DNA from: Clostridium pasteurianum
GTDB lineage: Bacteria; Bacillota; Clostridia; Clostridiales; Clostridiaceae
Assembly (NCBI RefSeq): GCF_001705235.1
Contig: NZ_MCGV01000001.1
Coordinates: forward strand, 992,001-1,056,000
Direction: 5' to 3'
DNA: 64,000 nucleotides
This document shows positions 4,627-64,000 of this stretch, piece after piece (the first letter of the stretch is position 1; every line of letters begins with the position of its first letter). The notes beneath the pieces are model-generated. The model was not told where the DNA came from, did not search any database, and saw nothing but the letters and a program-made list of their open reading frames with translations. Both the position numbers and the translations under genes were made by a program.

Positions 4627-4744
4627 TACCCGGCAATGACCTACTCTCCCACAGGGCAACCCCTGCAGTACCATCGGCGCTTTGGTTCTTAACCTTCGTG
4701 TTCGGTATGGGAACGGGTGTTGCAACCAAGCTATGATCACCGGA
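4627..4744 (-). rRNA. rrf: 5S ribosomal RNA
   Basis: About 117 nt between tRNA-Asn and 23S. The minus strand contains the typical 5S segments CCCGTTCCCATACCGAACACG and GGGAGAGTAGG, with complementary ends. Exact ends are estimated. Confidence 0.93.
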
Positions 4745-4780
4745 TTTACATTTTGTTTTTGAAAGTCAATCTTTCTACTC

Positions 4781-4849
4781 AACTACTAACTTCCACATGT
4801 ACCATAATACTTTGAAGCTAGTATTTTGGAACAAGTACAAGTTAAGTTT
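4781..4849. repeat. Spacer repeat, copy in the 23S-5S spacer
   Basis: About 69 bases that are roughly 80% identical, by hand alignment, to 11586-11654 upstream of uppP. Shared blocks include CCATAAT, CTTTGA, GCTAG and TTAAGTTTC. Function unknown. Confidence 0.55.
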
Positions 4850-4868
4850 CGTAAAGAAACTTGTATAT

Positions 4869-7908
<3,040 letters not shown>

Positions 7909-7911
7909 ACA

Positions 7912-7988
<77 letters not shown>

Positions 7989-8005
7989 ATGAGAATTAAG
8001 CTCTC

Positions 8006-9782
<1,777 letters not shown>

Positions 9783-29712: not shown

Positions 29713-29792
29713 GCAATATGTATATTTGCAAAAATAATTATAATCAATTTTGAGATACATAAAAGAGACTGTAGCATTAAATACCAAAAAAA

Positions 29793-29831
29793 GAACGTAC
29801 CATGTTTGTTTACACAAATCTATGTACGTTC
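29793..29831 (-). terminator. Terminator of the peptide synthetase operon
   Basis: Stem closed by GAACGTAC/GTACGTTC with inner TTTGT/ACAAA pairs. Seven T follow on the minus strand. It lies about 45 bases after the synthetase stop codon. Confidence 0.8.
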
Positions 29832-29874
29832 CTATTCTGATTTCACACAAACTTATTCATTGGTTTTATATACT

Positions 29875-32800
29875 TTATTCAGCTAATATATTTTTTAATA
29901 TCTCTGCATTTTTACCGCAATATTCTCCTGATAACATATCTAAATGAAGACCATACCCATCATATATAACGAACTTACCCATTGTATGGTTCTCCCAATT
30001 TAATAAGTATTCATAGTTTTCTCTTACTTCTCTAGTACTAGAGCTTGATATAACATAGATATTAGCTTTTACTTTTTCTTTGGTTATATTTTTATTATTG
30101 TACTGTATATATTTTTTATGATTTACCATAGCCCTTTCCGCTATATTTTCCTCAAATTCATGGAAATTGTCTATATTAAAAAAGTTTTTCATAATACTAA
30201 TAACCTCATACTTTGAAGGGTACGTTAAATTGTCTTTTACTGATTTTTTTACCGCCGAATCTAACATTATAATATCAGAAACTTCATAACCCTTCTTTTC
30301 TAGTACTTTAGCGACTTCAAAAGCTAAATTACCTCCACCAGAATATCCTAATAATATAAACGGTCCTTCATTTTGAGTATCTAATATGCTTTTTACATAC
30401 TCATCTATAATATTAGCATTATCAATAAAACTAAATGCATAAATTGAATAATTATCTATTCTATTTACTAAATTTAAATAGGAATATCCATATCCTATAG
30501 CCGGTGGAAATGCAAATATATTTTTACCTCCACTATAACTTAGCCTTGTAACAAATTTTCCGCCTTCACCTAAATCAGAATATAATAAATTACAAATATC
30601 TTTTATAGTTGGGTTTGTAAATAACTGATCCATTGTAACATTTAGGATTAATTGTTTTTTCATTTTTACCAACAAATCAACTAATTTAATAGAATTTCCA
30701 CCTAGTTCAAAGAAGTTATCATTTATTCCTACATTCCTTATTCCCAGTACATCTTCCCATATCTTAACTAACTTCTCTTCCATTTCATTTCTTGCCGCCT
30801 CATACTCTGCCCCTGTATTAATTTTTCCTTGTGGCTCTGGTAATGCCTTTCTGTCTACCTTTCCATTTATAGTTAGTGGCATTTTATCTATTTTTATAAA
30901 GTATGACGGAAGCATATAGTCTGGTAAAGATTTTTTAAGTTCTTCCCTTAATTCACCTACTCTGTATTCTTTCTCACCAACATAATACGCACATAGGCGC
31001 TTACTTTCTTCTTTTCCCTTTGCATCTACTACAGTTTCTTTTATTCCCTCTAGTTTTAGTAATGTATTTTCTATTTCTCCTATTTCTATTCTAAAACCTC
31101 TTATCTTAACTTGATAATCTATTCTTCCTAAGCATTCTATGGTTCCATCTGGCAGCCATCTTGCTAAATCTCCTGTTTTATACATTTTTTGCCCTGGTTC
31201 ATATGGATTTGCTACAAATTTCTCTTCGGTTAATTCTTTATTGTTTAAATATCCCCTTGAGAGCCCATATCCACTTATACATAGTTCTCCTGCTGCACCT
31301 ATTGGCATCAATTTATTGTTCTTATCAACTATATATATTCTTACATTATCTATTGGTTTTCCTAATGGCATATTTATATAATTTTTCAAATTATTTATAG
31401 TTATATTGTTACATGCAGCATCAACACAGCACTCCGTCGGTCCATATACGTTACTTATAATAAGCTCCTTATTATTAACTTTCTTATATATCTTTTCTAT
31501 TATTTTCCGTGTAAGTTTATCGCCACCAATTATCAAATTTTTAAGCTTTAAGTTTTTATTTGTTAGAAGCTCTGAATTAGCCATCATTGCTAAATGCATT
31601 GGTGTTCCATCTGTTATCTCTATTTTATTATTTAAGTAGAACTCAACTAACTTGTCGCCTTCTTTTCTAGCAGCTTCTGTAACTACATATAATGTATTTC
31701 CTAATAATAAAGCACAAAAGATTTGCTTAACTGATGCATCAAAAACATATGGAGCTACTAAAGCTATTTTTAAATTATCATTATATTTACTGTATATACT
31801 TTCATTTAATCCATGTACTAAATTAGTTACATTGGAATGCTCTATCATAACACCCTTAGGCTTCCCAGTTGTTCCTGATGTATATATTACATAGGCTAAA
31901 TTTTTTGCACTGGCAGTCTTACCTATGTTAGCACGATCTTCTTTATAGAACTCTTCATCTTCCAAGTCACATACGTCTATTTTTTCATTTTTTATTTTTT
32001 CTTTAAACTTACTTTGAGTTAATACTATTTCAGCTTTACTATTCTCTATCATATATTCTATTCTATTCTCTGGATATTCGGGGTCTATTGGCATATATGC
32101 TCCCCCTGCTTTTAAAATACCCATTATTCCCACTATCATTTCAAGAGAACGCTGCACCATTATTCCTACTACAGCATCCGCTCCTACACCTTTTTTCATT
32201 AAGGTTATTCCTAATGAATTAGCTCTTTCATTAAGCTCTTTATAAGTTAACTTTTTATCTTCATATACAACAGCAATATTATCTGGAGCCTTCTTCACGT
32301 TTTCCTCAAATAATTCATTTATTGTTTTCTCTCTTGGATAATCTACTTTTGTGTCATTAAACTCCATAAGTAACTTATACTTTTCTTCTTTCCTTACTAT
32401 TTCTATATCTTTAATTAGTACTTCTGTATTATCTATAACTTGATTTATTAAGCTTTCAAAATAATTTTTAATTTTTAGTACATTATTCCTTGAATACATT
32501 AATTTATTAAATTTAAACTTTATTAAAATAGTATCCTGATATATGACAGTTAAGTTAAAGTTGTAGTTTGTTTGCTCTTGTGATTTACAGCCAATTATTT
32601 TTAGATTGTTCTTAGTCAATACTTCATTATTAATGCCATCGGTGTCAACTGGATAGTTTTCAAATATCATTATGTTGTTTACTAATTTTTCTTTAACTTC
32701 ACTTAACCCTTGTATCTCTGCTAAAGGATAAAAATCATACTTGCTACTTTCTAAGAAAGACTTATTAACAGTAGTCAGTAATTCTTTAAACGTCATATTT

Positions 32801-35800
32801 CCTTCTGCTTTAACTCTTAAAGGTACAGTATTTATAAATAATCCCAACATATTTTCTATACCCTTAACCTCTGGATTTCTTCCTGATACAACATATCCAA
32901 ATACAGAGTCGCTACTGTTATTATACTTATTAAGCAGTACTGACCATACGCTTTGTATTATTGTATTAATTGTAACCTTACTATTTCTAGCTATTGCTTC
33001 AAGCTTTCTCGTTATATCTTTTCCTATATTAAAGTTAATTTCTTCTTTTTTATATTCCTTACTGCTCTCTTTATTTTCAAACGGTACTGCTGTTACCTCA
33101 TTATAATCTAAAAGGTATTTTCTCCAATATTCCTTTGCTGCATCTCTATCCTTATTATTAAGCCACTCTATATACTCATAATACGGTACTGCTTCTTTTA
33201 AATCTGCTTTGTATCCATACTTTAATTCATTATATATCTTAAATAATTCAAGCATTACTATATTAAGACACCAACCATCCATTATAATATGATGATTATT
33301 AAGTATTAGATTATATACATCCTCTTCTGTTTTAATTATTGTCAATTTTATAAGAACATCTTTATTTAAATCGAATCCTTGCTTTTTATCATTCTTTACT
33401 GCTTTATCTATATAGTCTTCTTTGTCAAATTTTTCATGACTTATATCTACATATCTGACATTTGCTTTTCTTTTATAAAATACAATTTGCATATTCCTAT
33501 TAAAGTTTTCATAATCAAAAGCAGTTCTTAAAATATCATGTCTTTCTACTAACTTATTAAAACTTTGTTTTAATAAGTCTATATCTAATTGTCCTTTTAC
33601 CTTTATTACTAATTCTTCATTATAAGCTTCTGATTTATTATCATATAACGTATGGTATAACATTCCTTCTTGCATTGGTGCCAAAGGGTATATATTTTTG
33701 ATATTATCTATATCTTTTAAATACGGTTTTAATTGCTGTAAGGTTATATTCTCCTTTGTTACATCTGCTGCTGTTTTTTCCGCTTTATCTTTATTCATAC
33801 AGTGTTTAATAATCTTTTCAAGATTATCTTTGTAATCATTAACCAGTGTTCTAATTGTTTCATCTTTGTATTCTGTAGTACTATAGCCTAAGTTTAAATT
33901 TAAGCATTTATCTACAAGTATCCCAGAAAAGTCTAATGAGTATAATCCCTTATTATTTAAACCTATTGAATTTCCACTGCTTAAAGGCGACATATTAAAG
34001 ATATCATTATTAATATCTTCATCAAACTGTCCAAGATAATTAAAGCTTATTTCTGGTTTTAACCTAAATTCCATCTTATCCTTAGATAGATATTTGATTA
34101 TGCCATAGCCAATTCCCTTATCAGGCACTCTCCTTAAAGAATCCTTTATATTCTTTATTGTAGTTTCTAAATCATCGCTATTACTATTCAATACTACTGG
34201 ATATTGCGAAGTAAACCAGCCTACTGTTCTGGTTATATCCACATTTTTTATAATTTCTTCTCTACCATGACATTCCAAGTTTACTAATATATTTTCCTCG
34301 CCTGTCCATTTACTTATTGTTAATGCCAAAGCTGTTAATAGCAAATCCTCTATTTCTGTGTTATATGCCTTATTTACATGTTTTAATAATTTCTCCGTTT
34401 CCTCTTTTGTAAGGTTAAATCCTACACTTCTTAAATCTTTAATCCTAGATACAGCTGCCTCTTTGTCCTTTGGAAGTTTCCTTATCTCATATTTGTCTAT
34501 GCCATTCCAATATTCTAATTGTTTTCTTATACTGTAGCTGTCAGCATATTTCTTCTGCTCTACTGCCCACTCTTTAAATGATGTTGTTTTATCTTGAAGT
34601 ATTATATCTTCTCCGTTTTTGGTCATTTCATATGCCCTTGATAAATCTTCAAATAATATTCTCCATGAAACCCCATCTATAACTAAATGGTGTATTGCTA
34701 CTAGTAAATGGTCTCCTTCATGGGTTTTAAATAAGCCTAATTTTACAAGAGGTCCATCATGTAGATTAATACTACCTTGAATTTCATCACACTTTTCTGT
34801 TATTTCTTTCTCATTTAAACCTTCATATACATTTAAATCGTATAACTTTTCACTTGTCCCTCTGTTAATTTGATGTACTTCACCATTTTCTTTCTTATAC
34901 ACCATTCTCAATGCATCGTGGTGAATAATTATAGCTTCAAATGCTTTTTCTAATGCTTCTTTTTCAAACCCATCTTTACTAAACAGCATTACTGATTGAT
35001 TCCAATGATGTTCTTCTTCAAAATTCATTTCAAAAAACCATTTTTGTATAGGAGTTAATTCTACTTCTCCAACTACTTCATCTTGGCTTATTGTTACAGC
35101 ATTTTTCTTTACGCACTTACTTAAAGCTTTTATATTTGAATTGTTGAATACATCCTTAACCTCAAAATAATATCCTTTTGCTTTAGCTCTTGATATTACC
35201 TGTATTGATTTTATGGAATCTCCACCTAAACTGAAAAAGTCATCATTTATTCCTATATCCTGTACTCCCAATACGTCTTCCCATATTTGTACAAGTTTTT
35301 GTTCTATTTCATTTCTTGGAGCCTCATATTCTGCTCCTGTATCAATTTTACCTTGTGGCTCTGGTAGTGCTTTTCTATTTATTTTTCCGTTTAATGTTAA
35401 TGGCATACTTTCTAGTTTTATAAAGTATGATGGCACCATGTAGTCTGGCATAGATTTTTTTAATTCTTCTCTAAACTCTCCTACACTGTACTCTTTTTCT
35501 CCAGCATAATATGCACATAGATATTTATTTACTGCCCCATCTCTTGCTAAAACTATTGTTTCTTTTATTCCTTCTAGTTTTAATATATTACTTTCTATTT
35601 CTCCAAGCTCTATTCTAAAACCACGTATCTTAACTTGATGGTCTATTCTTCCTAAATACTCTATGTTCCCATCTGGAAGCCATCTTGCTAGATCTCCTGT
35701 TCTGTACATTTTTTCTCCCGGCTCATATGGATTCTGTGCAAATTTTTCATTAGTTAACTTTTCGTTATTTAAGTATCCTCTAGCTACTCCGCAGCCACTT

Positions 35801-40758: not shown

Positions 40759-40805
40759 TTGTAATACCCCCCTAATTTCTTAGTACTAATCCACATTTAT
40801 TAATT

Positions 40806-40855
40806 CCAGATAGTAATGTGATTTAATTTTTCAATCTAATTACATTACCATCTGG
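40806..40855. repeat. Inverted repeat between the two synthetase genes
   Basis: CCAGAT-N-GTAATGT on one side and its complement on the other, about 50 bases in all. No T-run follows, so it is not a classical terminator; it may stabilise or partly attenuate the mRNA between subunits. Confidence 0.5.
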
Positions 40856-40873
40856 CATATTACTCCTTACTTG

Positions 40874-55800: not shown

Positions 55801-58800
55801 TTTTTCTATTCTCACTCATTATGTTTTTAATATAAAGCTCTTTATCAAATTTTTCTTTGCTTACATCCTTATATTCAACATAACTTGTTCTCTCTCTAAA
55901 TACAATTTGCATATTCTTATTAAAATTTTCGTAGTCAAAAGTGGTTCTTAATACATCATGCCTTTGTACTAACCTATTGAAACTCTGCTTTAATAAATCT
56001 ATATCTAAGTGTCCCTTTATTTTTATTGCTAATTGTTCATTATATAATTCCGGCTTATCGTCAGCAAGTGTATGATATAGCATTCCTTCTTGCATTGGTG
56101 TCAAAGGATATATATTTTTGATGTTGTCTATATCTTTTAAATATGGTTTTAATTGCTGTAAGTTTATATTCTCCTTTGTTACATCTGCTGCTGTTTTTTC
56201 CGTTTTATCCTTACCCATACAATGTTTAATAATTTTCGTAAGATTATCTTTATAATCATTAATTAATGCTTTAATTGTCTCATCATTATACTCCTCAGTG
56301 TTATACTTTAACTTTAAATTCATATTTTTATCTATAAGTATTGCTGAAAATTCTAATAAATATAAGCTTTTATTTTTTAAACCAATTGAATTTCCACTAC
56401 TTAACGATGATACCTTAAAAATATTATTATTTATATCTTCATCAAATTGTCCCAAATAGTTAAAGCATATTTCTGGTTTCAACTTATCATTAATTTGATT
56501 ATTAGAAAGATATTTAATTATGCCATATTCAATTCCTTTATCAGGTACTCTCCTTAAAGAATCCTTTATATTCTTTATTATAGTTTCTAAATCATCGCTA
56601 TTACTATTCAATACTACTGGATATTGCGAAGTAAACCAGCCTACTGTTCTGGTTATATCCACATTTTTTATAATTTCTTCTCTACCATGAGATTCCAAAT
56701 TTACTAATATATTTCCCTCGCCTGTCCATTTACTTATTGTTAATGCCAAAGCTGTTAATAGCAAATCCTCTATTTCTGTGTTATATGCCTTATTTACATG
56801 TTTTAATAATTTCTCCGTTTCCTCTTTTGTAAGGTTAAATCCTACACTTCTTAAATCTTTAATCCTAGATACAGCTGCCTCTTTGTCCTTTGGAAGTTTC
56901 CTTATCTCATATTTGTCTATGCCATTCCAATATTCTAATTGTTTTCTTATACTGTAGCTGTCAGCATATTTCTTCTGCTCTACTGCCCACTCTTTAAATG
57001 ATGTTGTTTTATCTTGAAGTATTATATCTTCTCCGTTTTTGGTCATTTCATATGCCCTTGATAAATCTTCAAATAATATTCTCCATGAAACCCCATCTAT
57101 AACTAAATGGTGTATTGCTACTAGTAAATGGTCTCCTTCATAGGTTTTAAATAAGCCTAATTTCACAAGAGGTCCATCATGCAGATTAATACCACCTTGA
57201 ATTTCATCACACTTTTCTGTTATTTCTTTCTCATTTAAACCTTCATATACATTTAAATCGTATAACTTTTCACTTGTCCCTCTATTAATTTGATGTACTT
57301 CACCATTTTCTTTCTTATACACCATTCTCAATGCATCGTGGTGAATAATTATAGCTTCAAATGCTTTTTCTAATGCTTCCTTTTCAAACCCATCTTTACT
57401 AAACAGCATTACTGATTGATTCAAATGATGTTCTTCTTCAAAATTCATTTCAAAAAACCATTTTTGTATAGGAGTTAATTCTACTTCTCCAACTACTTCA
57501 TCTTGGCTTATTGTTACAGCATTTTTCTTTACGCACTTACTTAAAGCTTTTATATTTGAATTGTTGAATACATCCTTAACCTCAAAATAATATCCTTTTG
57601 CTTTAGCTCTTGATATTACCTGTATTGATTTTATGGAATCTCCACCTAAACTGAAAAAGTCATCATTTATTCCTATATCCTGTACTCCCAATACGTCTTC
57701 CCATATTTGTACAAGTTTTTGTTCTATTTCATTTCTTGGAGCCTCATATTCTGCTCCTGTATCAATTTTACCTTGTGGCTCTGGTAGTGCTTTTCTATTT
57801 ATTTTTCCGTTTAATGTTAATGGCATACTTTCTAGTTTTATAAAGTATGATGGCACCATGTAGTCTGGCATAGATTTTTTTAATTCTTCTCTAAACTCTC
57901 CTACACTGTACTCTTTTTCTCCAACATAATATGCACATAGATATTTATTTACTGCCCCGTCTCTTGCTAAAACTATTGTTTCTTTTATTCCTTCTAGTTT
58001 TAATATATTACTTTCTATTTCTCCAAGCTCTATTCTAAAACCACGTATCTTAACTTGATGGTCTATTCTTCCTAAATACTCTATGTTCCCATCTGGAAGC
58101 CATCTTGCTAGATCTCCTGTTCTGTACATTTTTTCTCCCGGCTCATATGGATTCTGTGCAAATTTTTCATTAGTTAACTTTTCGTTATTTAAGTATCCTC
58201 TAGCTACTCCGCAGCCACTTATACACAACTCTCCTGCTACTCCTATTGGGAGCATTTTATTATTCTTATCAACTATATATATTTTTGTATTATCAATAGG
58301 TTTTCCTATTGGTATCATCTCTTCTTTTTCCCTACATTCGTAGTAGGTTACATCTACTGAAGCTTCTGTTGGTCCGTATAAATTTATTAGCCTTGTGTTA
58401 TTTACTCTTCCTATTTCTTCGTTAAATATGTTGGCTTGTTCTACTTTTAACGCTTCTCCACTTGTAAATACCTTCTCTAGGCTTTCTATATCTTCCACTT
58501 TATCTTCTGATATTACATAGTCCATAAAAACATTCAGCATTGATGGAACAAAGTGAAGAACTGTAATCTTTCCTTCTTTTATACTCTTTGTTATTTCTCT
58601 TGGATCTTTTTCTCCTCCTGGCACCAGCATCCTAACCTGAGCTCCAACAAATGACCACCACAATATTTCCCATACTGATACATCAAATGTATATGTTGTC
58701 TTTTGTAATATTACATCTTTGCTGCTTATGTTATATTTTTTCTGCATCCAATTAATTCTATTTACTATTCCTTTATGCTCTATCATAACTCCCTTAGGCT

Positions 58801-61525
58801 TTCCAGTTGTTCCTGATGTATATATTACATATGCTAAATTTTCCGCACTAGCTGTTTTACCTAAGTTAGCATTACTTTCTTTGTATAATTCTTCATCATT
58901 TAAGCTGCATACTTCTACGTTATTTTTATTTATTCTGTCTTTAAACTTGTTTTCTACTAATACTAGCTTTGTTTCACTGTTTTCTAGCATATATTCTATT
59001 CTGTCATCTGGATATTCTGGGTCTATTGGCATATATGCTCCCCCTGCTTTTAATATACCCATTATTCCTACTATCATTTCTAAGGAACGCTTCACCATTA
59101 TTCCTACTATTGAGTCCGCTCCTACGCCTTTTTTCGTTAGTGTTCTTCCTAATGAATTAGCTCTTTCATTTAGCTCTTTGTAAGTTAGACTCTGGTTTTC
59201 ATATACTACTGCAATGTTGTCTGGAGTCTTTTCCACCTGCATTTCGAAGAGTTCACTTACTACCTTACCTTCTGGATATTCTCCTTCCGTATTATTGAAC
59301 TTTTCTAGTATACTGCGTTCTTCTTCGCTTAGTATTTCTATATCCTTAATCTTAATTTCTTCATTGCTTGTCGTTTCTTTCACTATATTTAAAAAATGAT
59401 TTATCATTCTTTTGATAGTTTCATATTTATACAAGCTAGTTGCGTAACTCAAATTAAAACAAATTTCCTCTTTGACTTCTCTTGCATCAATTGTAATATC
59501 AAATTTTTCTATGCTTCCAGTTAATTTATATGGCTTAAAAATACTATTCTCTATTTCTATTTTGTATTCTTCCATATTGTCCAAAATAAACATAACATCA
59601 AATAAAGGATTTCTTCCTAAATCTCTATCTATATCTATTTTGTCTACAATTTTTTCAAACTGATAATCTTGATTTTCGTATGCTTTTAAAGCCTTATTTC
59701 TTACTATTTTTAAATAATCCCTAAAGCCTAAATCATTATTTACAGTACTTCTTATTGCCAAAGTATTTACGAACATACCTATTAAGTTTTCTAGGTCTGC
59801 GTGATTTCTACCAGCTATTGGACTTCCAACTACTATATCTTCTTGTCCGCTATATTTTGATAATAGTATATTTATATTTGCTAATAGTACCATGTACATA
59901 GTACTTCCAGTTTCTTTAGCTATCTTTCTTAATTTTTCAGTTGTTTTCTTATCTAAAACAAAATTTATACTTCTACCCTTGAAGTCTTTAACTTTTGGTC
60001 TTTTATAATCTGTAGGTAAGCTTAATACTGGTACTTCGTCACTAAATTCCTTTAACCAATATTGTTCCTGTTTTTTTAATTCTTCACTTTCATTCTTCTT
60101 TAACTGCCATGCAGAATAATCCTTATATTGTATCTTTAATTCTCCTAAATCCTTTTCTGCATATAAGTCGCTAATTTCCCTTGTTAGTATAGCTATTGAG
60201 ACTCCGTCTGATACTATATGGTGCATATCAAAAAACATAATATGTCTTTCTTTTTCTAATTTTATAATTCCTACCCTTAATAATGGTGCTTTTTCTAAAT
60301 CAAACGGTCTTATAAATTCTTCAAACTTTTCTTTCACTTCTTCTTCATTTTTTATTTCTATTTTCTCTATTTCAAATTGTATTTCATTAGCTTTATTAAT
60401 TCTTTGCACTATCTTATCATCTTTAGTGTAAAAGCTTGTCCTTAATGTCTCATGCCTATTTATTAACTTTATAAAGGCTTCCTGCATTCTATCTATTTCA
60501 AACATACCCTCTATCTCTAAAGCTCCAGGCATATTGTATACAGTACTGTCCTTATCAATCTCTTGAAGCATATATGTTCTCTTTTGAGCTGATGAGGCTT
60601 CATAATACTGTTTTTCATTTACTCTTTCTATTTCTTCATATTCTTTTTTACTAATAGCCTCTATATACTCACTTAATCCTTTAATACTCCCTTTGCTAAA
60701 TATTTCTCTTAGCGGTATTTCTACATTCAATTTTTTATAAATTCTGCCTATTAAAGTTGTTGCATTTAACGAATGTCCACCCAATTCAAAGAAGTCATCA
60801 TTTATTCCTATATTAGTTACACCTAATACGTCCTGCCATATCTCTACTAACTTCTCTTCTAACTCATTTCTTGGTGCTTCGTACTCTGCTCCTGTGTTGA
60901 TTTTTCCCTGTGGCTCTGGTAATACTCTTCTATCCACTTTACCATTTGGTGTTAATGGCATGCTTTCTAGTTTTATAAAGTATGCTGGAACCATGTAATC
61001 TGGTAGAGATTTTTTTAGCTCTTCTCTTAATTCACCTACGGTGTATTCTTTTTCTCCTACATAGTACGAACATAGGTACTTACTTCCTACTTCCCCTTTT
61101 GCTAAAACTACTGTTTCCTTTATTCCTTCTATTTTTGATAATCTATTTTCGATTTCTCCAAGCTCTATCCTAAAGCCTCTTATTTTAACCTGATGATCTA
61201 TTCTCCCTAGATACTCCATATTCCCATCAGGCAATACTCTAACTAAATCTCCTGATCTATATATTTTCTCTTTTGGGTTGTATGGATTCTTAACAAATCT
61301 TTCTGCTGTTAGCTTTTCGTTATTTAAATATCCTCTCGCTACACCATCTCCTCCAACACATAATTCTCCTGCAATGCCTATTGGCTGAATTTTTAAATTT
61401 TCATTCATTACATATGTCGTTAGCGTTGGAATCGGCTTTCCTATATTGCTTACTCCCTTTTCTATATCTTCACTTGTTATTTCTTTAAAGGTTACGTGAA
61501 CTGTTGTCTCCGTTATTCCATACAT
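40874..61525 (-). CDS. Nonribosomal peptide synthetase, rest of module 1 to C domain of module 7
   Basis: The frame is open from 61627, just after an in-frame TAG. 61525 is only the first ATG, inside the A domain (MYGITETT), and has no ribosome binding site, so this part is best read as the continuation of 61628-63784. Order: end of A1, T1; C2-A2(Ser)-T2-E2; C3-A3(Thr)-T3; C4-A4(unassigned)-T4-E4; C5-A5(Ser)-T5; C6-A6(Leu)-T6; C7; then a tail of Asp and Phe (NFDFDFED). All seven C and E active sites keep HHxxxDG. C3 and C5, which follow E domains, are of the D-donor type. Without the stop the first subunit would have about 7635 residues, which is very large even for this family. Confidence 0.9.
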   Translation of the reverse strand: MYGITETTVHVTFKEITSEDIEKGVSNIGKPIPTLTTYVMNENLKIQPIGIAGELCVGGDGVARGYLNNEKLTAERFVKNPYNPKEKIYRSGDLVRVLPDGNMEYLGRIDHQVKIRGFRIELGEIENRLSKIEGIKETVVLAKGEVGSKYLCSYYVGEKEYTVGELREELKKSLPDYMVPAYFIKLESMPLTPNGKVDRRVLPEPQGKINTGAEYEAPRNELEEKLVEIWQDVLGVTNIGINDDFFELGGHSLNATTLIGRIYKKLNVEIPLREIFSKGSIKGLSEYIEAISKKEYEEIERVNEKQYYEASSAQKRTYMLQEIDKDSTVYNMPGALEIEGMFEIDRMQEAFIKLINRHETLRTSFYTKDDKIVQRINKANEIQFEIEKIEIKNEEEVKEKFEEFIRPFDLEKAPLLRVGIIKLEKERHIMFFDMHHIVSDGVSIAILTREISDLYAEKDLGELKIQYKDYSAWQLKKNESEELKKQEQYWLKEFSDEVPVLSLPTDYKRPKVKDFKGRSINFVLDKKTTEKLRKIAKETGSTMYMVLLANINILLSKYSGQEDIVVGSPIAGRNHADLENLIGMFVNTLAIRSTVNNDLGFRDYLKIVRNKALKAYENQDYQFEKIVDKIDIDRDLGRNPLFDVMFILDNMEEYKIEIENSIFKPYKLTGSIEKFDITIDAREVKEEICFNLSYATSLYKYETIKRMINHFLNIVKETTSNEEIKIKDIEILSEEERSILEKFNNTEGEYPEGKVVSELFEMQVEKTPDNIAVVYENQSLTYKELNERANSLGRTLTKKGVGADSIVGIMVKRSLEMIVGIMGILKAGGAYMPIDPEYPDDRIEYMLENSETKLVLVENKFKDRINKNNVEVCSLNDEELYKESNANLGKTASAENLAYVIYTSGTTGKPKGVMIEHKGIVNRINWMQKKYNISSKDVILQKTTYTFDVSVWEILWWSFVGAQVRMLVPGGEKDPREITKSIKEGKITVLHFVPSMLNVFMDYVISEDKVEDIESLEKVFTSGEALKVEQANIFNEEIGRVNNTRLINLYGPTEASVDVTYYECREKEEMIPIGKPIDNTKIYIVDKNNKMLPIGVAGELCISGCGVARGYLNNEKLTNEKFAQNPYEPGEKMYRTGDLARWLPDGNIEYLGRIDHQVKIRGFRIELGEIESNILKLEGIKETIVLARDGAVNKYLCAYYVGEKEYSVGEFREELKKSMPDYMVPSYFIKLESMPLTLNGKINRKALPEPQGKIDTGAEYEAPRNEIEQKLVQIWEDVLGVQDIGINDDFFSLGGDSIKSIQVISRAKAKGYYFEVKDVFNNSNIKALSKCVKKNAVTISQDEVVGEVELTPIQKWFFEMNFEEEHHLNQSVMLFSKDGFEKEALEKAFEAIIIHHDALRMVYKKENGEVHQINRGTSEKLYDLNVYEGLNEKEITEKCDEIQGGINLHDGPLVKLGLFKTYEGDHLLVAIHHLVIDGVSWRILFEDLSRAYEMTKNGEDIILQDKTTSFKEWAVEQKKYADSYSIRKQLEYWNGIDKYEIRKLPKDKEAAVSRIKDLRSVGFNLTKEETEKLLKHVNKAYNTEIEDLLLTALALTISKWTGEGNILVNLESHGREEIIKNVDITRTVGWFTSQYPVVLNSNSDDLETIIKNIKDSLRRVPDKGIEYGIIKYLSNNQINDKLKPEICFNYLGQFDEDINNNIFKVSSLSSGNSIGLKNKSLYLLEFSAILIDKNMNLKLKYNTEEYNDETIKALINDYKDNLTKIIKHCMGKDKTEKTAADVTKENINLQQLKPYLKDIDNIKNIYPLTPMQEGMLYHTLADDKPELYNEQLAIKIKGHLDIDLLKQSFNRLVQRHDVLRTTFDYENFNKNMQIVFRERTSYVEYKDVSKEKFDKELYIKNIMSENRKKGFNLSKDALIKLIIVKIERNSYSLILNNHHIIMDGWCLNIIMMELFKVYNELKYGYKAALKDVVPYSEYIEWLNNRDEKAAKEYWKNYLLDYNEATLLPFQNNKVKGEYKDAQVDFVIEEDVTKKLQTIARNNKVTINTILQSIWSLLLQKYNNSSDSVFGYVVSGRNPEVKGIENMLGLFINTVPLRVKTKEDMTFKELLANVNKSFIESSKYDFYSLANTQALSQIGKKLINNIMIFENYPVDSEGINNEILAKNDLQIIGFKSEEQTNYNFNVIVSYQDNISIKFNFNESLYSENNVIKIKEHFENLVKQIIENEEVLVKDIEIINEEEKHRLLVEFNDTKADYPRNKTINELFEKHAEKTPDDIAVVYEDKKMSYKELNERANSLARALREKGVGKDVIVGMLVERSVNMIVGIMGILKAGGAYMPIDPDYPEDRIEYTLENSKATIVLTQDKFKNKIKNKDIKICDINNEEFYKYRSTNLGKTADSNSLAYIIYTSGTTGKPKGVMIEHNNVVRLMFNDKMPFDFSNKDIWTMFHSYCFDFSVWEMYGALLYGGRLIVVPKIVAKDSEKYLDLLKKEKVTVLNQTPSAFYNLMNVEANSDGRKLNLRYIIFGGEALNPQKLSKWKQKYQETKIINMYGITETTVHVTFKEITSEDIEKGVSNIGKPIPTLTTYVMNEDLKIQPIGIAGELCVGGDGVARGYLNNEKLTAERFVKNPYNPKEKIYRSGDLVRVLPDGNMEYLGRIDHQVKIRGFRIELGEIENRLSKIEGIKETVVLAKGEVGSKYLCAYYVGEEEYTVGELREELKKSLPDYMVPAYFIKLESMPLTPNGKVDRRVLPEPQGKINTGAEYEAPRNELEEKLVEIWQDVLGLTNIGINDNFFELGGHSLNATTLTGRISKVLNVEVPLKEIFSNGNIKGLSKYIATISSKQYEAIEKVDEKQYYEVSSAQKRMYMLQEFDKDSTAYNMPRALEILGQIEIEKIKNVFISLIERHETLRTSFYTKDDKIVQRINKANEIQFEIEKIEIKNEEEVKEKFEEFIRPFDLEKAPLLRVAIIKLEKERHIMFFDMHHIASDGVSMSILTKEFSKLYSGKDLGELKVQYKDYSAWQLKKIESKEFKKQEQYWLKEFSDEVPVLNLPTDYKRPRVKDFRGRSINFVLDKETTEKLRKIAKETGSTMYMVLLANINILLSKYSGQEDIVVGSPIAGRNHADLENLIGMFVNTLAIRSTLNDELSFRDYLKTVRNKATKAYENQDYQFEEIVDKIDIDRDLGRNPLFDVMFVLQNMEEAKVEINDLIFRTYNTNDNVEKFDITITAEEREEEIYFNLSYATSLYKHGTIERMKKHLLNIIEEIGQNAEIKIKDIELIDEEEKHKLLIEFNDTKAAYPREKTINELFEEEVEKIPDNIAVVCEDKKLTYKELNEKANSLARVLKKKGIGAESIVGIMVKRSLEMIVGIMGILKAGGAYMPIDPEYPDDRIEYMLENSKTEIVLTENKFKEKIKNEEIDVCDLKGEELYKEDCANLGKTASAKNLAYVIYTSGTTGKPKGVMINHSSVINTLMFLQKNYPMDKEGAYLQKTNYVFDVSVSEIFGWFIGGGKLIVLNNGYEKDAKYILKSIIDNSISHINFTSSMFNLFLNELDNNIRNIESLKYILTAGETLRIENNKVFKSLIKSTRIENLYGPTEATVYSTKYSLKDIFDNIPIGKPIDNAKMYIVDKNTKLVPIGVVGELCIGGDGLARGYLNNKELTEEKFVANPYEPGQKMYRTGDLARWLSDGNIEYLGRMDHQVKIRGFRIELGEIESNLLKIEGIKEVVVLAREKAGNNYLCAYYIGEKEYSVGQLREELKKSIPDYMLPSYFIKLKSIPLTPNGKVDRKALPEPQGKINTGAEYEAPRNEVEKQLVEIWQDVLDIDEIGINDDFFNLGGDSIKSIQVISRAKAKGYYFEVKDVFNNSNIKALSKWVKKNAVTISQDEVVGEVELTPIQKRFFERNFEEKQHWDQAVMLFSKNGFEKEILEKVFKAIIIHHDALRMVYKNENGEIHQINRGTGEKLYDLNVYEGLNEEEITEKCNQIQDSIDLEEGPLVKLGLFKTHKGDHLLIAIHHLVIDGVSWRILFEDLSKAYEMTKNGEDIILQDKTTSFKEWAVEQKEYADSYRIRKQLEYWKGIDKCDIRKLPKDREVAVTKMADLRSIGFNLTEQQTETLLKNVNKAYNTEINDILLTALGLAISKWTGSENTLVNLEGHGREEIIKNVDITRTVGWFTSQYPVVLNSNSNDLEATIKNIKDSLRRVPDKGIGYGIIKYLSKDKMEFRLKPEISFNYLGQFDEDINNDIFNMSPLSSGNSIGLNNKGLYSLDFSGILIDKKLNIDIRYNDKEYKDETIKKLIQEYRNNLITIIEHCMNKDKSEKTAADVTKENITLQQLKPYLKDIDNIKNIYSLTPMQEGMLYHALADNKSEAYNEELVIKIKGQLDISLLNESFNRLVERHDILRTVFDYENFNRDMQIVFYKRKANVRYVDISHEKFDKEDYIDKAVKNDKKQGFDLNKDVLIKLTIIKTEEDVYNLILNNHHIIMDGWCLNIIMLELFKIYNELKFGYKAKLEEAVPYSEYIEWLNNKDREAAKYYWTNYLADYDEAAIVPFENKENSKEYKKSEVAFEIKRDMTKKLEVIARENKVTINTIMQSVWALLIQKYNNSNDSVFGYVVSGRNAEVKGIESMLGLFINTVPLRVKTENNMTFKELLSNINKSFAESSQWDFYPLADIQGLSDVKEKLVNNIMVFENYPVDSDGINNEILDKNDLKIVNVEAQEQTNYNFNLLVIYQDTISIKFNFNESVYSKDNVLKIKDHFENLVSQIIKDEEIKIKDIEILSEEERSILEKFNNTEGEYPEGKVVSELFEMQVEKTPDNIAVVYEKQSLTYKELNERANLLGRTLTKKGVGADSIVGIMVKRSLEMIVGIMGILKAGGAYMPIDPEYPDDRIEYMLENSETKLVLVENKFKDRINKNNVEVCSLNDEELYKESNANLGKTASAENLAYVIYTSGTTGKPKGVMIEHKGIVNRINWMQKKYNISSKDVILQKTTYTFDVSVWEILWWSFVGAQVRILVPGGEKDPREITKSIKEGKITVLHFVPSMLNVFMDYVISEDKVEDIESLEKVFTSGEALKVEQANIFNEEIGRVNNTRLINLYGPTEASVDVTYYECREKEEKIPIGKPIDNTKIYIVDKNNKMLPIGVAGELCISGCGVARGYLNNEKLTNEKFAQNPYEPGEKMYRTGDLARWLPDGNIEYLGRIDHQVKIRGFRIELGEIESNILKLEGIKETIVLARDGAVNKYLCAYYVGEKEYSVGEFREELKKSMPDYMVPLYFIKLESMPLTLNGKINRKALPEPQGKIDTGAEYEAPRNEIEQKLVQIWEDVLGVQDIGINDDFFELGGHSLKATTLVGRIYKVLNVEVPLREIFSKRNIKVLSEYIDSVSKKEYEAIEKVEEKEYYEASSAQKRMYMLQELDKDSIAYNMPGALEILGDFDIKRMQEVFIKLIERHETLRTSFYSKGDKIVQKITKIHEINFEIEQIEVKSEEEVEKKFQKFIRPFELDKVPLLRAGIIKLEEKRHVMFFDMHHIVSDGVSMSILTREFSDLYTGKDLGELKVQYKDYSAWQLKKRESEDFKKQEEYWLGEFSGEIPVLNLPTDYKRPKVKEFNGRSINFVLDKETTERLREIAKETGSTMYMMLMANINILLSKYSGQEDIIIGSPIAGRNHVDLENVIGMFVNTLAIRSSVNSEASFKQYLKTVKSKALKAFENQDYQFEELVDKIDVDRDLSRNPLFDIVFVLQNMEEAKMKIKDLTFKPYDINDDIEKFDMTMMAVEGKEEIYFKLSYATSIYKEETIERMINHFLNIVKVTVRNIEVKLKDIEIVSEEEKRKLLVEFNDTSVDYSKDKTITELFEEQVERTPQNTAVVFKDEKLTYKELNEKANSLARVIAQKGICQDDIVGIMVENSIEMIVGIMAILKAGGAYLPIDPEYPEDRIEYMLENSKTNIVLTKGKLKEKITGDKREIYDLDNEELYKESKSNLGKTSKANNLAYVIYTSGTTGKPKGVMMEHKGLVNLSLWHNRYYEVTEEDRATKYAGVGFDASVWEIFPYIIAGAAIHVIYDSIRLNIELLNDYYEKNKITISFLPTQIFEQFIQQKNQSLRKLLTGADRLKVYKEQTYELINNYGPTENAVVTTSFRIDKEYRNIPIGRPIDNVRIYIVDENNKLLPIGVAGELCVSGDGLARGYINNEELTKEKFAANPYESGQRMYRTGDLARWIPNGNIEYLGRIDHQVKIRGFRIELGEIENNLLKLEEIKEVVVLAREKEENKYLCAYYVGEKEYNISELREELKKSLPDYMIPAYFIKLESMPLTPNGKVDRKALPEPDGKINTGVKYEAPRNELEKQLVEIWEDVLDVCDIGINDNFFEIGGHSLKATTLIGRIYKKLNIEVPLKEIFSRGSIKGLSEYIESINKTEYEAIERVEEQECYEASSAQKRMYMLQELDKDSTAYNVPGSLEVLGKFEIERMQEAFIKLIERHETLRTSFYTVDNKIVQMVNKASEIQFEIEKIEVRTEEEIQEKIKEFIRPFDLGTAPLLRAAVIKLEEERYIMIFDMHHIVSDGISMSILTKEISQLYIGKDLGELKVQYKDYSAWQLNKKASEEYKRQEEYWLQEFSREIPVLKLPTDYARPKTKDFKGDSISFVLDKETTEGLRNIAKKTETTMYMVLLANINVVLSKYSEQEDIVVGSPIAGRNHVDLENLIGVFVNTLAIRSHVNGELSFKEYLKTVKNKALKAYENQDYQFEELASKVEKYRNLSRNPLFDVMFVLENEGEAKIEVEGLTFKPYILSNKMEKFDITIAASEGTEEIKFNFSYATSLYKRETMEDMIECFKHMIKVSSSNLDIAIKDISLMTNNEAYDFLSKTKSSNFNKDNFDFDFED
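40960..42260 (-). other. NRPS C domain of module 7, C-terminal end of the first subunit
   Basis: A full C domain (SSAQKRMYML, HHIVSDG, RNPLFDVMFV) with no A domain after it in the same protein. It ends in an acidic tail (DNFDFDFED) that could dock to the half C domain at the start of the next subunit. Confidence 0.8.
42290..45330 (-). other. NRPS module 6: C - A(Leu) - T
   Basis: C6 45330-44060 (HHIVSDG), A6 44030-42550 with pocket D-A-W-F-L-G-N-V-V-K, a known leucine code, T6 42520-42290 (IGGHSLKA). No epimerisation. This A domain is clearly different from the Ser and Thr copies around it. Confidence 0.8.
45370..48500 (-). other. NRPS module 5: C (D-acceptor type) - A(Ser) - T
   Basis: C5 48500-47210 (YSLTPMQEGMLYH, HHIIMDG), A5 47190-45620 with the serine pocket D-V-W-H-F-S-L-V-D-K, T5 45590-45370 (LGGHSLKA). 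Confidence 0.8.
48560..52970 (-). other. NRPS module 4: C - A(unassigned) - T - E
   Basis: C4 52970-51700 (HHIASDG, Ala in place of the usual Val), A4 51690-50140, T4 50110-49890 (LGGDSIKS), E4 49860-48560 (HHLVIDG). The pocket reads D-V-S-N-L-A-L-V-Y-K, which matches no code I know; Ser in place of Trp at position 239 hints at a larger side chain. The product is a D-residue. Confidence 0.7.
53010..56130 (-). other. NRPS module 3: C (D-acceptor type) - A(Thr) - T
   Basis: C3 56130-54850 (YPLTPMQEGMLYH, HHIIMDG), A3 54800-53260 with pocket D-F-W-N-I-G-M-V-H-K, the canonical threonine code, T3 53240-53010 (LGGHSLNA). It is nearly the same DNA as the interrupted A1. Confidence 0.8.
56180..60620 (-). 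other. NRPS module 2: C - A(Ser) - T - E
   Basis: C2 60620-59340 (HHIVSDG), A2 59335-57790 with the serine pocket D-V-W-H-F-S-L-V-D-K, T2 57770-57540, E2 57500-56180 (HHLVIDG, GWFTSQYP). Gives D-Ser. Confidence 0.8.
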
Positions 61526-61627
61526 ATTGATAATTTTTGTTTCTTGATATTTTTGTTTCCATTTACTTAGCTTTTGAGGATTTAAAGCTTCTCCTCCAAA
61601 TATAATATATCTTAAATTTAACTTTCT

Positions 61628-61630
61628 CTA
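61628..61630 (-). other. In-frame TAG inside the module 1 A domain
   Basis: Codons GAC TAG AGA AAG here, GAC GGG AGA AAG in the near-identical module 3 copy (53979-53987). Frame continues without shift on both sides. Two base changes are needed, so a single-base sequencing error does not explain it. Confidence 0.9.
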
Positions 61631-63784
61631 GTCACTATTTGCTTCTATGTTCATTAAATTATAAAATGCTGATGGTGTTTGATTTAATACTGTTACCTTT
61701 TCTTTTTTCAGTAGCTCTAAATATTTCTCAGAATCTTTAGCTACTATCTTAGGCACTACTATTAGCCTTCCACCGTAAAGTAAAGCTCCATACATTTCCC
61801 ATACTGAAAAATCAAAGCAGTATGAATGGAACATTGTCCATATATCTTTGTTACTAAAATCAAATGGCATTTTATCATTAAACATAAGTCTAACCACATT
61901 GTTATGCTCTATCATAACACCCTTAGGTTTTCCCGTTGTTCCTGATGTGTATATTATATACGCTAAGCTATTTGAATCTGCCGTTTTACCTAGATTAGTA
62001 CTTCTGTACTTATAAAACTCTTCATTATTTATGTCACATATTTTTATATCTTTATTTTTTATTTTATTTTTAAATTTATCCTGAGTTAATACTATTGTTG
62101 CTTTACTATTTTCAAGGGTATATTCTATTCTGTCCTCTGGATAGTCGGGGTCTATTGGCATATATGCTCCTCCTGCCTTCAAAATACCCATTATTCCTAC
62201 TATCATGTTGACAGATCTCTCTACAAGCATTCCTACTATTACATCTTTACCTACTCCCTTTTCTCTTAAGGCCCTTGCTAAAGAGTTCGCCCTTTCATTT
62301 AGCTCTTTATAGCTCATCTTTTTATCTTCATATACAACTGCAATATCATCCGGTGTCTTTTCTGCATACTTCTCAAATAATTCATTTATCATTTTATTCC
62401 TTGGGTAATCTGCCTTTGTATCATTAAATTCTACTAATAATCTGTGCTTTTCTCTGTCTGTAACTACATCTATATCATTAATATTTTTGTCACTGTCTTT
62501 TATAATATTTTCAACTAAATGTTTTATATTAGTAACAACATTTTCTATTGGTATGAATTTTTCAAATGCATCAATGGCATAATCAAAATTAATTTCAACA
62601 TCCTTATCCTCATCAAATTCTCGAATAAATACAGCTAAAGCATTTCTTTCATGCATATTACTTAATGTTTTTATATCTGTTTTTGTTCCATTAAAAACTG
62701 CTGCATAGTTATGATTTTCATAAGATAAGGTTATATCAAACAATTTCTGATCTCTATCTTTAGAAATACTTGTGTAAATTTCTCCAAAAGAGAGCTTTTG
62801 GTGTCTATAGCATGCCTTTAGCTCCATCTTTATTTCATTCATTAATTCCGAAAAATTCTTTTCTTTTGATACTTCTATCTTTAAAGGTATAACATTGGCA
62901 AAATGACCTACTATTTGCTTATGGCTAGCTTTTCTTCTATTTAATATAGGAACTCCAATTACTACCTCTTTTGAATTAGAAACTCTTGCAAAATATGTAC
63001 TTAATACACCAAGAAAAAAATGAAATACAGAACATTTTTCCTTGGTGCAGTATTCTATTATTTGATTATATATATTTCTCTTTATTATTACACTTTCTCT
63101 ATTACTAAATGCCAGTTTATTACTTTTAATATTTCTAACAAATATATTTTGAGGAATACATTTAAATTTATCTTTCCAAAATTCTCTATCCTTCAAATAC
63201 TTATCCGATTCTCTATACGATTCATTATCTCTTATAAATTCCAAGTAAGAATGTTTTTCTATCTCATTTTGAGAATTATCTATTTCATTGTAATTACTAA
63301 CTAATTCTCTAACTATAATCGAATGTCCCCATCCATCTGATATTATGTGATGCACCCTAGAAAAATAAAAATATCTATTTTCATCTACTTTAATAAGTAC
63401 AATTTCAAATAGATTATCATTACTATTGAAATCAAATGGTTTTAAAAATTCTTCTTGCATCCATTCTAATGAAAACTTTTCAGAATACTCTTTTGATGAA
63501 AAATCATAAAATGGCACCTTATATTCTATTTTTTTCAATATTTTCTGAAATGGTTTACCATCATGTTCCTCTATTCTAATTCTTAAACTATCATTATCTC
63601 CAATGAGTTTTTGTACAGCCTTTTGGAAACTTAAATAATTAATGTTACCCTTAATATCAGCATAACCGCCAATATTGTATATTGGCTTATTTTTATATAA
63701 ACATTGTTCGGTCCATACATCCTTTTGATATGATGTTAAAGGATACTTTTCCACTTCTTGATTGTCTAATTGCTCTTTTAACAT
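61628..63784 (-). CDS. Nonribosomal peptide synthetase, N-terminal part (starter C and first half of A1)
   Basis: 718 residues from ATG 63784, ending at the in-frame TAG. The frame opens at ATG 63859, but 63784 is preferred because it is preceded by GGGGGTATACAAAAA, almost the same as the site of the second synthetase gene. It contains a C domain (about 15-430, HHIISDGW) and the A domain up to QTPSAFYNLMN, including the ATP-binding YTSGTTGKPKG. As it stands the protein lacks half the A domain and all of T1, so it could not load an amino acid alone. Function needs read-through, or the gene is broken. First gene of the operon. Confidence 0.85.
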   Translation of the reverse strand: MLKEQLDNQEVEKYPLTSYQKDVWTEQCLYKNKPIYNIGGYADIKGNINYLSFQKAVQKLIGDNDSLRIRIEEHDGKPFQKILKKIEYKVPFYDFSSKEYSEKFSLEWMQEEFLKPFDFNSNDNLFEIVLIKVDENRYFYFSRVHHIISDGWGHSIIVRELVSNYNEIDNSQNEIEKHSYLEFIRDNESYRESDKYLKDREFWKDKFKCIPQNIFVRNIKSNKLAFSNRESVIIKRNIYNQIIEYCTKEKCSVFHFFLGVLSTYFARVSNSKEVVIGVPILNRRKASHKQIVGHFANVIPLKIEVSKEKNFSELMNEIKMELKACYRHQKLSFGEIYTSISKDRDQKLFDITLSYENHNYAAVFNGTKTDIKTLSNMHERNALAVFIREFDEDKDVEINFDYAIDAFEKFIPIENVVTNIKHLVENIIKDSDKNINDIDVVTDREKHRLLVEFNDTKADYPRNKMINELFEKYAEKTPDDIAVVYEDKKMSYKELNERANSLARALREKGVGKDVIVGMLVERSVNMIVGIMGILKAGGAYMPIDPDYPEDRIEYTLENSKATIVLTQDKFKNKIKNKDIKICDINNEEFYKYRSTNLGKTADSNSLAYIIYTSGTTGKPKGVMIEHNNVVRLMFNDKMPFDFSNKDIWTMFHSYCFDFSVWEMYGALLYGGRLIVVPKIVAKDSEKYLELLKKEKVTVLNQTPSAFYNLMNIEANSD

Positions 63785-63915
63785 TTTTTGTATACCCCCA
63801 TTGTCTAATTTACACGATAATAATTTGATTATGGCAAAATATCTCCTAAACGTTTTCATTTTCTTCTAATTTTAATCTCTTATGTTATTTTTTAATGAGT
63901 TATTACATATTTACC

Positions 63916-63944
63916 ATTATAGTACATAATGTCTATATAGTAAA
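63916..63944 (-). promoter_or_regulatory. Probable promoter of the peptide synthetase operon
   Basis: On the minus strand TTTACT (63944-63939), 17 bases, TATAAT (63921-63916), about 130 bases before ATG 63784. Confidence 0.6.
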
Positions 63945-64000
63945 GTTAATTGATTTTATTGAAGTTATTTGAAATAAACTAGTGTAAATATTTTTACTTA

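What the first reader, a model, noticed from the sequence alone, without database searches (positions are those of the whole stretch)
29875..63784. Nine-module peptide synthetase predicted to make a Ser/Thr-rich acyl nonapeptide
Seen: nine A domains, nine catalytic C domains, three E domains and one TE in collinear order. Known: pocket codes DFWNIGMVHK (Thr), DVWHFSLVDK (Ser), DAWFLGNVVK (Leu), DAKDLGVVDK (Glu). Inference: acyl?-Thr-D-Ser-Thr-D-X-Ser-Leu-Ser-D-Ser-Glu, possibly closed as a lactone through a Thr or Ser hydroxyl. I know of no clostridial product with this sequence.
Basis: partly seen in the sequence, partly recalled or inferred. Interest (0 to 1): 0.8.

Follow-up and report, generated by a model that had tools for sequence, protein, structure and literature searches.

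The report
Mobile clostridial nine-module peptide synthetase
A very large enzyme assembly line that would build a nine-residue, probably acyl-capped peptide is really there, but in this genome its first module carries a premature stop, and near-identical copies sit at other chromosomal spots in two other Clostridium species, so it appears to have spread recently between species and changed some of its building-block choices on the way.

Summary
Confirmed: nine adenylation (A), nine complete condensation (C), three epimerization (E) domains and one thioesterase (TE), collinear. Codes re-derived: Thr, Ser, Thr, X, Ser, Leu, Ser, Ser, Glu-like. The same gene is open in Clostridium hydrogenum.

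Beyond the claim: outside modules 7-8 the ~34.2-kb unit is about 95-97% identical in C. hydrogenum and in the C. acidisoli pieces read, with unrelated flanks in each. Against C. hydrogenum, NRPS dS is 0.08-0.11 and that of a clpB-like gene 1.37. So it spread horizontally and recently; C. acidisoli is in another GTDB genus. C. hydrogenum has Asn and X at modules 7 and 8, C. acidisoli Asn at 7; the window has Ser, Ser on near-exact copies of its own module 2. No vehicle was found.

Verdict: real; a new member of a known enzyme kind, product unknown. The spread and self-overwriting are the interesting part.

The parts
29785..29832 (-). intrinsic terminator hairpin and T run; the 3' edge of the unit shared with C. 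acidisoli
   Evidence: fold -15.3 kcal/mol, z -4.13; homology to C. acidisoli ends at 29787, alignment. The simple pattern scan did not list it
29875..40758 (-). ORF3, 3627 aa: C-lobe fragment, A7-T7-C8-A8-T8-E8-C9-A9-T9-TE
29878..30558 (-). thioesterase domain (GYSGG)
   Evidence: PF00975 E 9.9e-17 for ORF3; 95% in C. hydrogenum and 96% in C. acidisoli
31246..32310 (-). A9, code DAKDIGVVDK (Glu-like)
33765..35100 (-). E8 epimerization domain (approximate ends)
   Evidence: HHLVIDGVSW motif and E group
35770..36828 (-). A8, Ser code; specificity segment 100% (rounded) identical in DNA to A2, A5 and A7
34038..36738 (-). A8-T8-E8 stretch, 145-150 of 150 nt per step identical to the line's own module 2 (module 4 in the last step); ends approximate
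   Evidence: C. hydrogenum has an X-type A8 here
38908..39966 (-). A7, Ser code (DLTKIGEVGK, Asn-like, in C. hydrogenum and C. acidisoli)
38358..40053 (-). A7 to T7 stretch copied from module 2 (146-150 of 150 nt per step; one step best to module 5); ends approximate
40024..40758 (-). orphan C-lobe: C-terminal half of a condensation domain without N-lobe and HHxxxDG, directly before A7
   Evidence: (C. acidisoli counterpart covers PF00668 positions 186-456)
40874..61525 (-). ORF2, 6883 aa as listed: rest of A1 to C7; same frame as ORF1
40877..42289 (-). C7 (LCL-position group), last domain of ORF2, with acidic tail NFDFDFED
42959..43960 (-). A6, code DAWFLGNVVK (Leu)
46040..47098 (-). A5, Ser code
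48550..49885 (-). E4 epimerization domain (approximate ends)
50555..51598 (-). A4, code DVSNLALVYK (X; nearest solved relative is LgrA's second A domain)
53678..54730 (-). A3, code DFWNIGMVHK (Thr)
56185..57520 (-). E2 epimerization domain (approximate ends)
58190..59248 (-). A2, Ser code; apparent donor of A7 and A8
61325..62377 (-). A1, Thr code read from its two pieces, interrupted by a stop
61628..61630 (-). in-frame TAG inside A1
   Evidence: (1 TAG); the C. hydrogenum frame is open over it
61628..63859 (-). ORF1, 743 aa: C1 and N-terminal part of A1
62435..63751 (-). C1, presumed starter C domain
   Evidence: PF00668 residues 37-475; closest solved chain 7c1h, own group
63860..64000 (-). 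upstream segment shared by all three species; it continues to about 64042 outside the window
   Evidence: a sigma-70-like match at L020 5945-5917, not above chance

Best explanation
This is a two-gene, nine-module non-ribosomal peptide synthetase (NRPS) operon that reached the Clostridium of the window by recent horizontal transfer and is, as sequenced, interrupted in module 1. When intact, as in C. hydrogenum, a starter-type C domain would join an acyl group to Thr. Eight further modules then add D-Ser, Thr, D-X, Ser, Leu, (Ser or Asn), D-(Ser or X), Glu, with E domains inverting residues 2, 4 and 8, and the TE releases the chain. The shared unit runs from about 180 bp before the first gene to just past the second and carries no tailoring, transport or carrier-activation gene, so it must use the host's phosphopantetheinyl transferase. 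In the window, modules 7 and 8 were overwritten with copies of the line's own module 2, changing the predicted peptide at two positions. Shown by sequence: architecture, codes, stop, identity and divergence values, unrelated flanks, the mosaic. Inferred: substrates, acylation, release, loss of function, direction of the module changes.
For: Domains and order; C and E groups match position; codes. Stop; open frame of 7663 codons in C. hydrogenum. DNA identity to C. hydrogenum 96.7% over 2228 bp of ORF1 and 96.2% over 20,655 bp of ORF2; stretches compared among all three genomes 95.2-96.8%, against 75.4-77.8% for a clpB-like gene. dS window against C. hydrogenum 0.086, 0.108 and 0.081 for ORF1, ORF2 and the last part of ORF3, against 1.367 for the clpB-like gene. 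Flanks unrelated: one hit outside the unit, an SSB-like gene at 67%. Unit absent from G003, the nearest relative (81.6%), and from G002. C. acidisoli falls in another genus group (g30 against g1). Module 2 as donor: over residues 250-799 of ORF3 the window's own ORF2 matches 1632 of 1650 nt and C. hydrogenum's first gene 1597 of 1650; over 1350-2199, 2530 and 2442 of 2550 (sums of the rows). dN/dS 0.22-0.27. PF01648 gene of 201 aa beside a thioesterase-like gene at G000:C1:3.29 Mb.
Against: One assembly only: the TAG could be a sequencing error, and near-identical repeats can be misassembled (equal gene lengths in C. hydrogenum argue against a wrong module count). dS was computed for one housekeeping gene and one pair; two neighbouring regulators (70-75% DNA) and a thioesterase gene (59% and 82% protein identity) agree, and no genome-wide set was run. 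No vehicle: no integrase, no intact transposase, no terminal repeats seen; C. hydrogenum's 3' edge lies 87 bp nearer the stop codon than in the other two. C. acidisoli is split over contigs: modules 2, 3 and the A domain of module 8 are on no piece that I read. C. hydrogenum's ORF3 is only 90.6% over 9105 bp because of modules 7-8. Codes do not prove substrates; X with an E domain conflicts with a plain Gly reading.
Confidence: 0.82

Rival explanations
1. An ordinary, vertically inherited clostridial NRPS, kept in a few species and lost in the others.
For: Patchy retention is common for NRPS (Baunach et al., PMC8097286, passages); all three hosts lie in one family.
Against: dS is 13-17 times lower than for the clpB-like gene, flanks differ in all three hosts, and one host lies in another genus group.
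Confidence: 0.05
2. The interruption is only a sequencing or assembly error, and the window's strain makes the peptide.
For: A single stop in 22,986 bp; dN/dS of ORF1 (0.27) resembles that of ORF2 (0.22), so no sign of long decay.
Against: Two contigs, estimated 99.99% complete with 4.03% contamination; no direct evidence of error. Pyrrolysine read-through is unlikely: the best PylS_Cterm match scores 26 bits against a cut-off of 178. A recent true stop would leave dN/dS unchanged too.
Confidence: 0.3
3. Modules 7 and 8 with Ser are ancestral, and C. hydrogenum and C. acidisoli received Asn (and X) later.
For: The three copies are almost equally distant (95-97%), so they give no rooted order.
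Against: The Ser segments of A2, A7 and A8 in the window are 100% (rounded) identical while A2 against C. hydrogenum A2 is 98%, which marks the window's copies as recent; the Asn-like code is in 2 of 3 copies.
Confidence: 0.12
4. C1 is an ordinary first C domain or a non-lipid initiator, so the product is a free or short-acyl peptide.
For: C1 scores 110.4 bits to RzmA-Cs, a starter domain whose main product bears acetyl, but 109.4 to 8xjz and 100.5 to a tyrocidine C domain.
Against: The first gene begins with a C domain with an intact HHIISDG, unneeded without an upstream donor, and it groups apart.
Confidence: 0.25

Closest known systems
Starter-C lipopeptide NRPS such as RzmA (rhizomide synthetase; PMC7804268, passages read)
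   Same: A C domain before the first A domain; C1's best solved match is 7c1h, which the paper names as RzmA-Cs.
   Different: Different peptide; the acyl donor here is unknown, and the score margin over other C domains is small.
Linear gramicidin synthetase LgrA (6mfy, 9meh)
   Same: Best solved relative of both the Ser A domain and the X A domain by sequence.
   Different: No formylation domain here (that LgrA has one and that its module 2 uses Gly are recalled); X is followed by an E domain, which Gly would not need.
Natural A-core recombination in NRPS (Baunach et al., PMC8097286; wollamide/desotamide, PMC9205934; passages read)
   Same: Intragenomic exchange of A-domain DNA changing a residue of the product.
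   Different: Here one module of a line is copied over two others of the same line; in module 7 the exchange takes the whole A domain and part of T, and in module 8 the matching block runs on into E.
NRPS on plasmid pHD03 of Paenibacillus sp. IHB B 3084
   Same: 45% identity to C1, the top row of 544 plasmid records with a match.
   Different: Its two A domains seen both read DAWLVGAVIK; the matching C region is in two pieces, nearly all upstream of the annotated gene.

Membership tests
Modular NRPS | repeated C-A-T modules in order, ending in TE | tested here: met
   (Pfam on ORF1 and ORF3 only; ORF2 by PF00501, motifs and tree)
Modular NRPS | phosphopantetheinyl transferase in the host | tested here: met
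   two PF01648 genes over cut-off, one of 201 aa, Sfp-like by eye; activity not tested
Modular NRPS | C domains after E domains differ in type from the others | tested here: met
   each of the four position groups lies on one side of a branch (support 94/95 for the post-E group); the type names DCL and LCL are recalled
Working NRPS in the window's strain | an open frame through every module | tested here: not met
   TAG in A1; the C. hydrogenum frames are open
Starter-C (lipo-initiating) NRPS | first C domain in the starter clade | tested here: inconclusive
   groups apart; best solved match RzmA-Cs by about one bit; no reference panel of starter domains was used
Starter-C (lipo-initiating) NRPS | N-acyl product | not testable with these tools
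   needs mass spectrometry
Horizontally transferred gene cluster | divergence far below the genomic background, with unrelated flanks | tested here: met
   background from one housekeeping gene for dS
Cargo of a known mobile element (transposon, integrative element, plasmid, phage) | an identified vehicle | tested here: not met
   only transposase relics beside the window's left edge and one tRNA beside C. hydrogenum's; no close match to ORF3's 3' third in plasmids or to the TE in viral contigs

The most novel reading that the evidence does not exclude
The ~34-kb operon is a self-contained cassette that moves between clostridial genera without any accessory gene, borrows each host's phosphopantetheinyl transferase and type II thioesterase, and diversifies its peptide by using its own module 2 as a template to overwrite other modules; the orphan C-lobe at the start of the second gene, kept in all three species, would be a docking element between its two proteins.
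Probability: 0.3. Interest if true: 0.6.

Novelty: new member of a known kind. Interest (0 to 1): 0.48.

Why it matters
Few clostridial non-ribosomal peptides are known (recalled). Here the product is largely predictable, named relatives carry the operon, and two versions of one assembly line with exchanged A domains are a natural experiment on which exchanges neighbouring C and E domains tolerate, a question NRPS engineers ask. The warning is equally practical: anyone screening the window's strain for this peptide should first check the stop in module 1, and may do better with C. hydrogenum.

Tried and rejected
Pyrrolysine read-through of the TAG: no PylS match over cut-off. Plasmid or phage vehicle: 4226 bp of ORF3's 3' part found one 66-bp hit in 72,556 plasmid records, and the TE query found no relative in viral contigs; other parts of the unit were not searched there at DNA level. 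Co-transfer of the type II thioesterase beside the C. acidisoli copy: it is 59% identical in protein to the window genome's gene and 82% to C. hydrogenum's, which sit elsewhere; the phosphopantetheinyl transferase pieces beside it gave no DNA hit to the window genome's gene. Terminal inverted repeats or target duplications: none seen by eye; no repeat search was run. Pocket codes in print: of six codes searched, DLTKIGEVGK and DVWHFSLVDK were found, in one paper each (passages); both X codes, the A9 code and an LgrA-derived code were not. NCBIfam on ORF1 and ORF3: in the 25 rows shown for each, no NRPS equivalog (the rows named for a particular synthetase) reached its cut-off; on ORF3 some generic adenylation or ligase models did. 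The orphan C-lobe was predicted at low confidence (mean pLDDT 58.6); its top 50 listed matches include condensation, epimerization and cyclization domains, which supports its origin but not a docking role. In 206 family genomes its matches other than the three copies were at 25-31% identity. Papers on truncated C domains as docking elements: 3 held three or more of the terms; I read passages of one (PMC11186497), which concerns a different, carrier-like adaptor, and saw the other two as listings. MIBiG, antiSMASH and NRPSpredictor were not available.
Full report
Observation. On the minus strand are three large open frames: 61628-63859 (743 aa), 40874-61525 (6883 aa) and 29875-40758 (3627 aa). 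The first two share one frame, interrupted by one TAG at 61628-61630. Nine A domains were found by PF00501, the best at E 9.1e-97. Pfam on ORF1 and ORF3 and motifs on all three give the order C1-A1-T1 / C2-A2-T2-E2 / C3-A3-T3 / C4-A4-T4-E4 / C5-A5-T5 / C6-A6-T6 / C7 | C-lobe fragment, A7-T7 / C8-A8-T8-E8 / C9-A9-T9-TE. ORF2 was not scanned with Pfam; T6 lacks the exact pattern used, and its sequence was seen.

C-domain types. A tree of 26 C, E and C-lobe rows of the window and C. hydrogenum puts the ten LCL-position, six post-E, six E and two first C domains in one group each (3 changes, the least possible; 0 of 200 shuffles as low). The tool warned that long branches meet, so relations between groups are not read, and the post-E group has support 94/95. 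C1's best solved match is 7c1h at 110.4 bits, the starter domain of rhizomide synthetase (passages). The margin over 8xjz is about one bit, so N-acylation is likely but not shown.

Substrates. Codes were read by aligning 40 A domains and taking the columns of the recalled GrsA positions; K at position 10 was assumed. Passages of PMC12283262 list DAWFLGNVVK first among the common Leu/Ile/Val codes, DFWNIGMVHK among Thr codes, and DLTKIGEVGK in the Asp/Asn/Glu/Gln section; that it means Asn is recalled. A passage of PMC3795760 gives DVWHFSLVDK for Ser. X (DVSNLALVYK) is nearest among solved chains to LgrA's second A domain (E 9.5e-63). That module is recalled to load glycine, but an E domain follows here, so a small chiral residue such as Ala stays open.

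The stop. C. hydrogenum has one open frame of 7663 codons over the same stretch and a second gene of 3629 codons. No pyrrolysyl-tRNA synthetase match passes its cut-off in the window genome (26 against 178 bits). ORF2's listed start has no ribosome site visible to me, whereas ORF3's has a strong one (by eye). I take this copy as probably non-functional, with sequencing error the main alternative.

Relatives and spread. Among 98 genomes, own included, 10 had a TE match, 2 of them above 90% identity (own and G001). A pattern scan of the one-genome-per-species collection (84,980 species by the tool's description) gave 8 loci: C. hydrogenum CUEA01 at 95%, C. acidisoli DSM 12555 at 96%, and six in Paenibacillus and Caldalkalibacillus at 31-37% (it may leave out the window's own genome). 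In the family, 16 of 206 genomes, own included, match the C-lobe fragment, 3 at 94% or more and 13 at 31% or less. C. acidisoli appears there as G215, in genus group g30, the window in g1; the G215 locus is letter for letter inside the C. acidisoli contig. The homology runs from 29874 (C. hydrogenum) or 29787 (C. acidisoli) to about 64042; outside it the only hit was 218 bp of an SSB-like gene (80 kb of C. hydrogenum and the fetched C. acidisoli pieces compared). All three copies share the left edge, about 180 bp before the start codon; in the window and C. acidisoli the right edge is a terminator hairpin, while the C. hydrogenum homology ends at the stop codon.

Clock. For a clpB-like gene (named by eye) DNA identities are W-G001 77.8, W-G098 75.4 and G001-G098 76.4, whereas the two NRPS stretches compared are at 95.2-96.8. 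Window against C. hydrogenum, dS is 1.367 for that gene and 0.086 (ORF1), 0.108 (ORF2) and 0.081 (ORF3 from residue 2340) for the NRPS, with dN/dS 0.22-0.27. All of ORF3 gives dS 0.292 and dN/dS 0.32 because modules 7 and 8 are mosaic. The nearest relative by this gene, G003 (81.6%), lacks the unit, as does G002. I read this as a recent horizontal spread. I found no vehicle. Beside the left edges lie pieces of ISL3 and Mutator-family transposases in the window genome and a tRNA-Thr in C. hydrogenum.

Mosaic. In C. hydrogenum module 7 carries DLTKIGEVGK and module 8 DVSNLALIYK; in C. acidisoli module 7 is also DLTKIGEVGK and module 8's A domain is on no contig I read. In the window both are Ser. 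The specificity segments of A2, A5, A7 and A8 are 100% identical in DNA after rounding (A5 differs in one residue), against 98% to C. hydrogenum A2. In 150-nt steps, ORF3 residues 250-799 match the window's ORF2 at 146-150 of 150 (module 2 in 10 of 11 steps), and steps from 1350 to 2200 at 145-150 (module 2 in 17 of 18). C. hydrogenum's own first gene matches the same steps nearly as well but less: 1597 against 1632 of 1650, and 2442 against 2530 of 2550 for the first 17 steps of the second stretch (sums). Over the A cores the match to C. hydrogenum's ORF3 falls to 20-39 of 150. The simplest account is copying from the line's own module 2. Such exchange inside a genome is known (PMC8097286, PMC9205934; passages).

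Accessory functions. By reading translations, not by family search, the neighbours are an rRNA operon, clpB-, ftsH- and SSB-like and other genes downstream, and pentose-use genes including a sugar-type transporter upstream. None looks dedicated to a peptide; an UppP/BacA-like gene lies at 10592-11515. A 201-aa phosphopantetheinyl transferase gene and a thioesterase gene lie 2.2 Mb away. In C. acidisoli a thioesterase gene (PF00975, E 7.1e-38) and two pieces of a phosphopantetheinyl transferase (one over the Pfam cut-off, one below) lie just upstream of the NRPS; the thioesterase's divergence is at background level.

Junction. ORF2 ends in a complete C7 and an acidic tail; ORF3 begins with about 245 residues that match only the second half of a C domain (22-26% to six of the window's own C-lobes) and are kept at 94% in both relatives. 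A predicted model (mean pLDDT 58.6) matches condensation-superfamily structures (best E 8.3e-08, query TM-score 0.50). A docking role is my guess.

Verdict. The thing is an ordinary kind of enzyme with an unknown product and an uncommon, well-supported history.

Noticed in passing
[not shown]
   Followed up: no
G000:C1:4197173-4204339 (L008, L012): A third NRPS frame of 2500 aa with two A domains (codes DTFVMGGVIK, DAFLMGIVVK).
   Followed up: no
G000:C1:3292439-3295741 (L074): Thioesterase-like gene, 201-aa phosphopantetheinyl transferase gene and a biotinyl-carrier-like gene (by eye) in a row, away from the NRPS frames found.
   Followed up: partly
L058 11337-11698 (C. acidisoli): Phosphopantetheinyl transferase in two pieces in different frames just upstream of the thioesterase gene and the NRPS.
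   Followed up: partly
L020 6151-6847 (about window-equivalent 64150-64846): Relics of ISL3 and Mutator-family transposases directly upstream of the unit in the window genome.
   Followed up: partly
L037 14288-14363 (C. hydrogenum): tRNA-Thr (cgt) gene about 40 bp beyond the left edge of the unit.
   Followed up: no
window 4547-9570: rRNA operon (16S, tRNA, 23S, 5S, tRNA) on the minus strand, about 20 kb from the NRPS.
   Followed up: no
window 10592-11515: UppP/BacA-like undecaprenyl-diphosphatase gene, named by eye, about 18 kb from the NRPS; no reason found to link the two.
   Followed up: no
L059 4519-5748 (C. acidisoli): MFS transporter (PF07690) just downstream of the NRPS in C. acidisoli; not at that place in the other two.
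   Followed up: no
L072 20001-21286 (Paenibacillus plasmid pHD03): C domain 45% identical to C1, in two pieces and nearly all upstream of the annotated NRPS gene.
   Followed up: no
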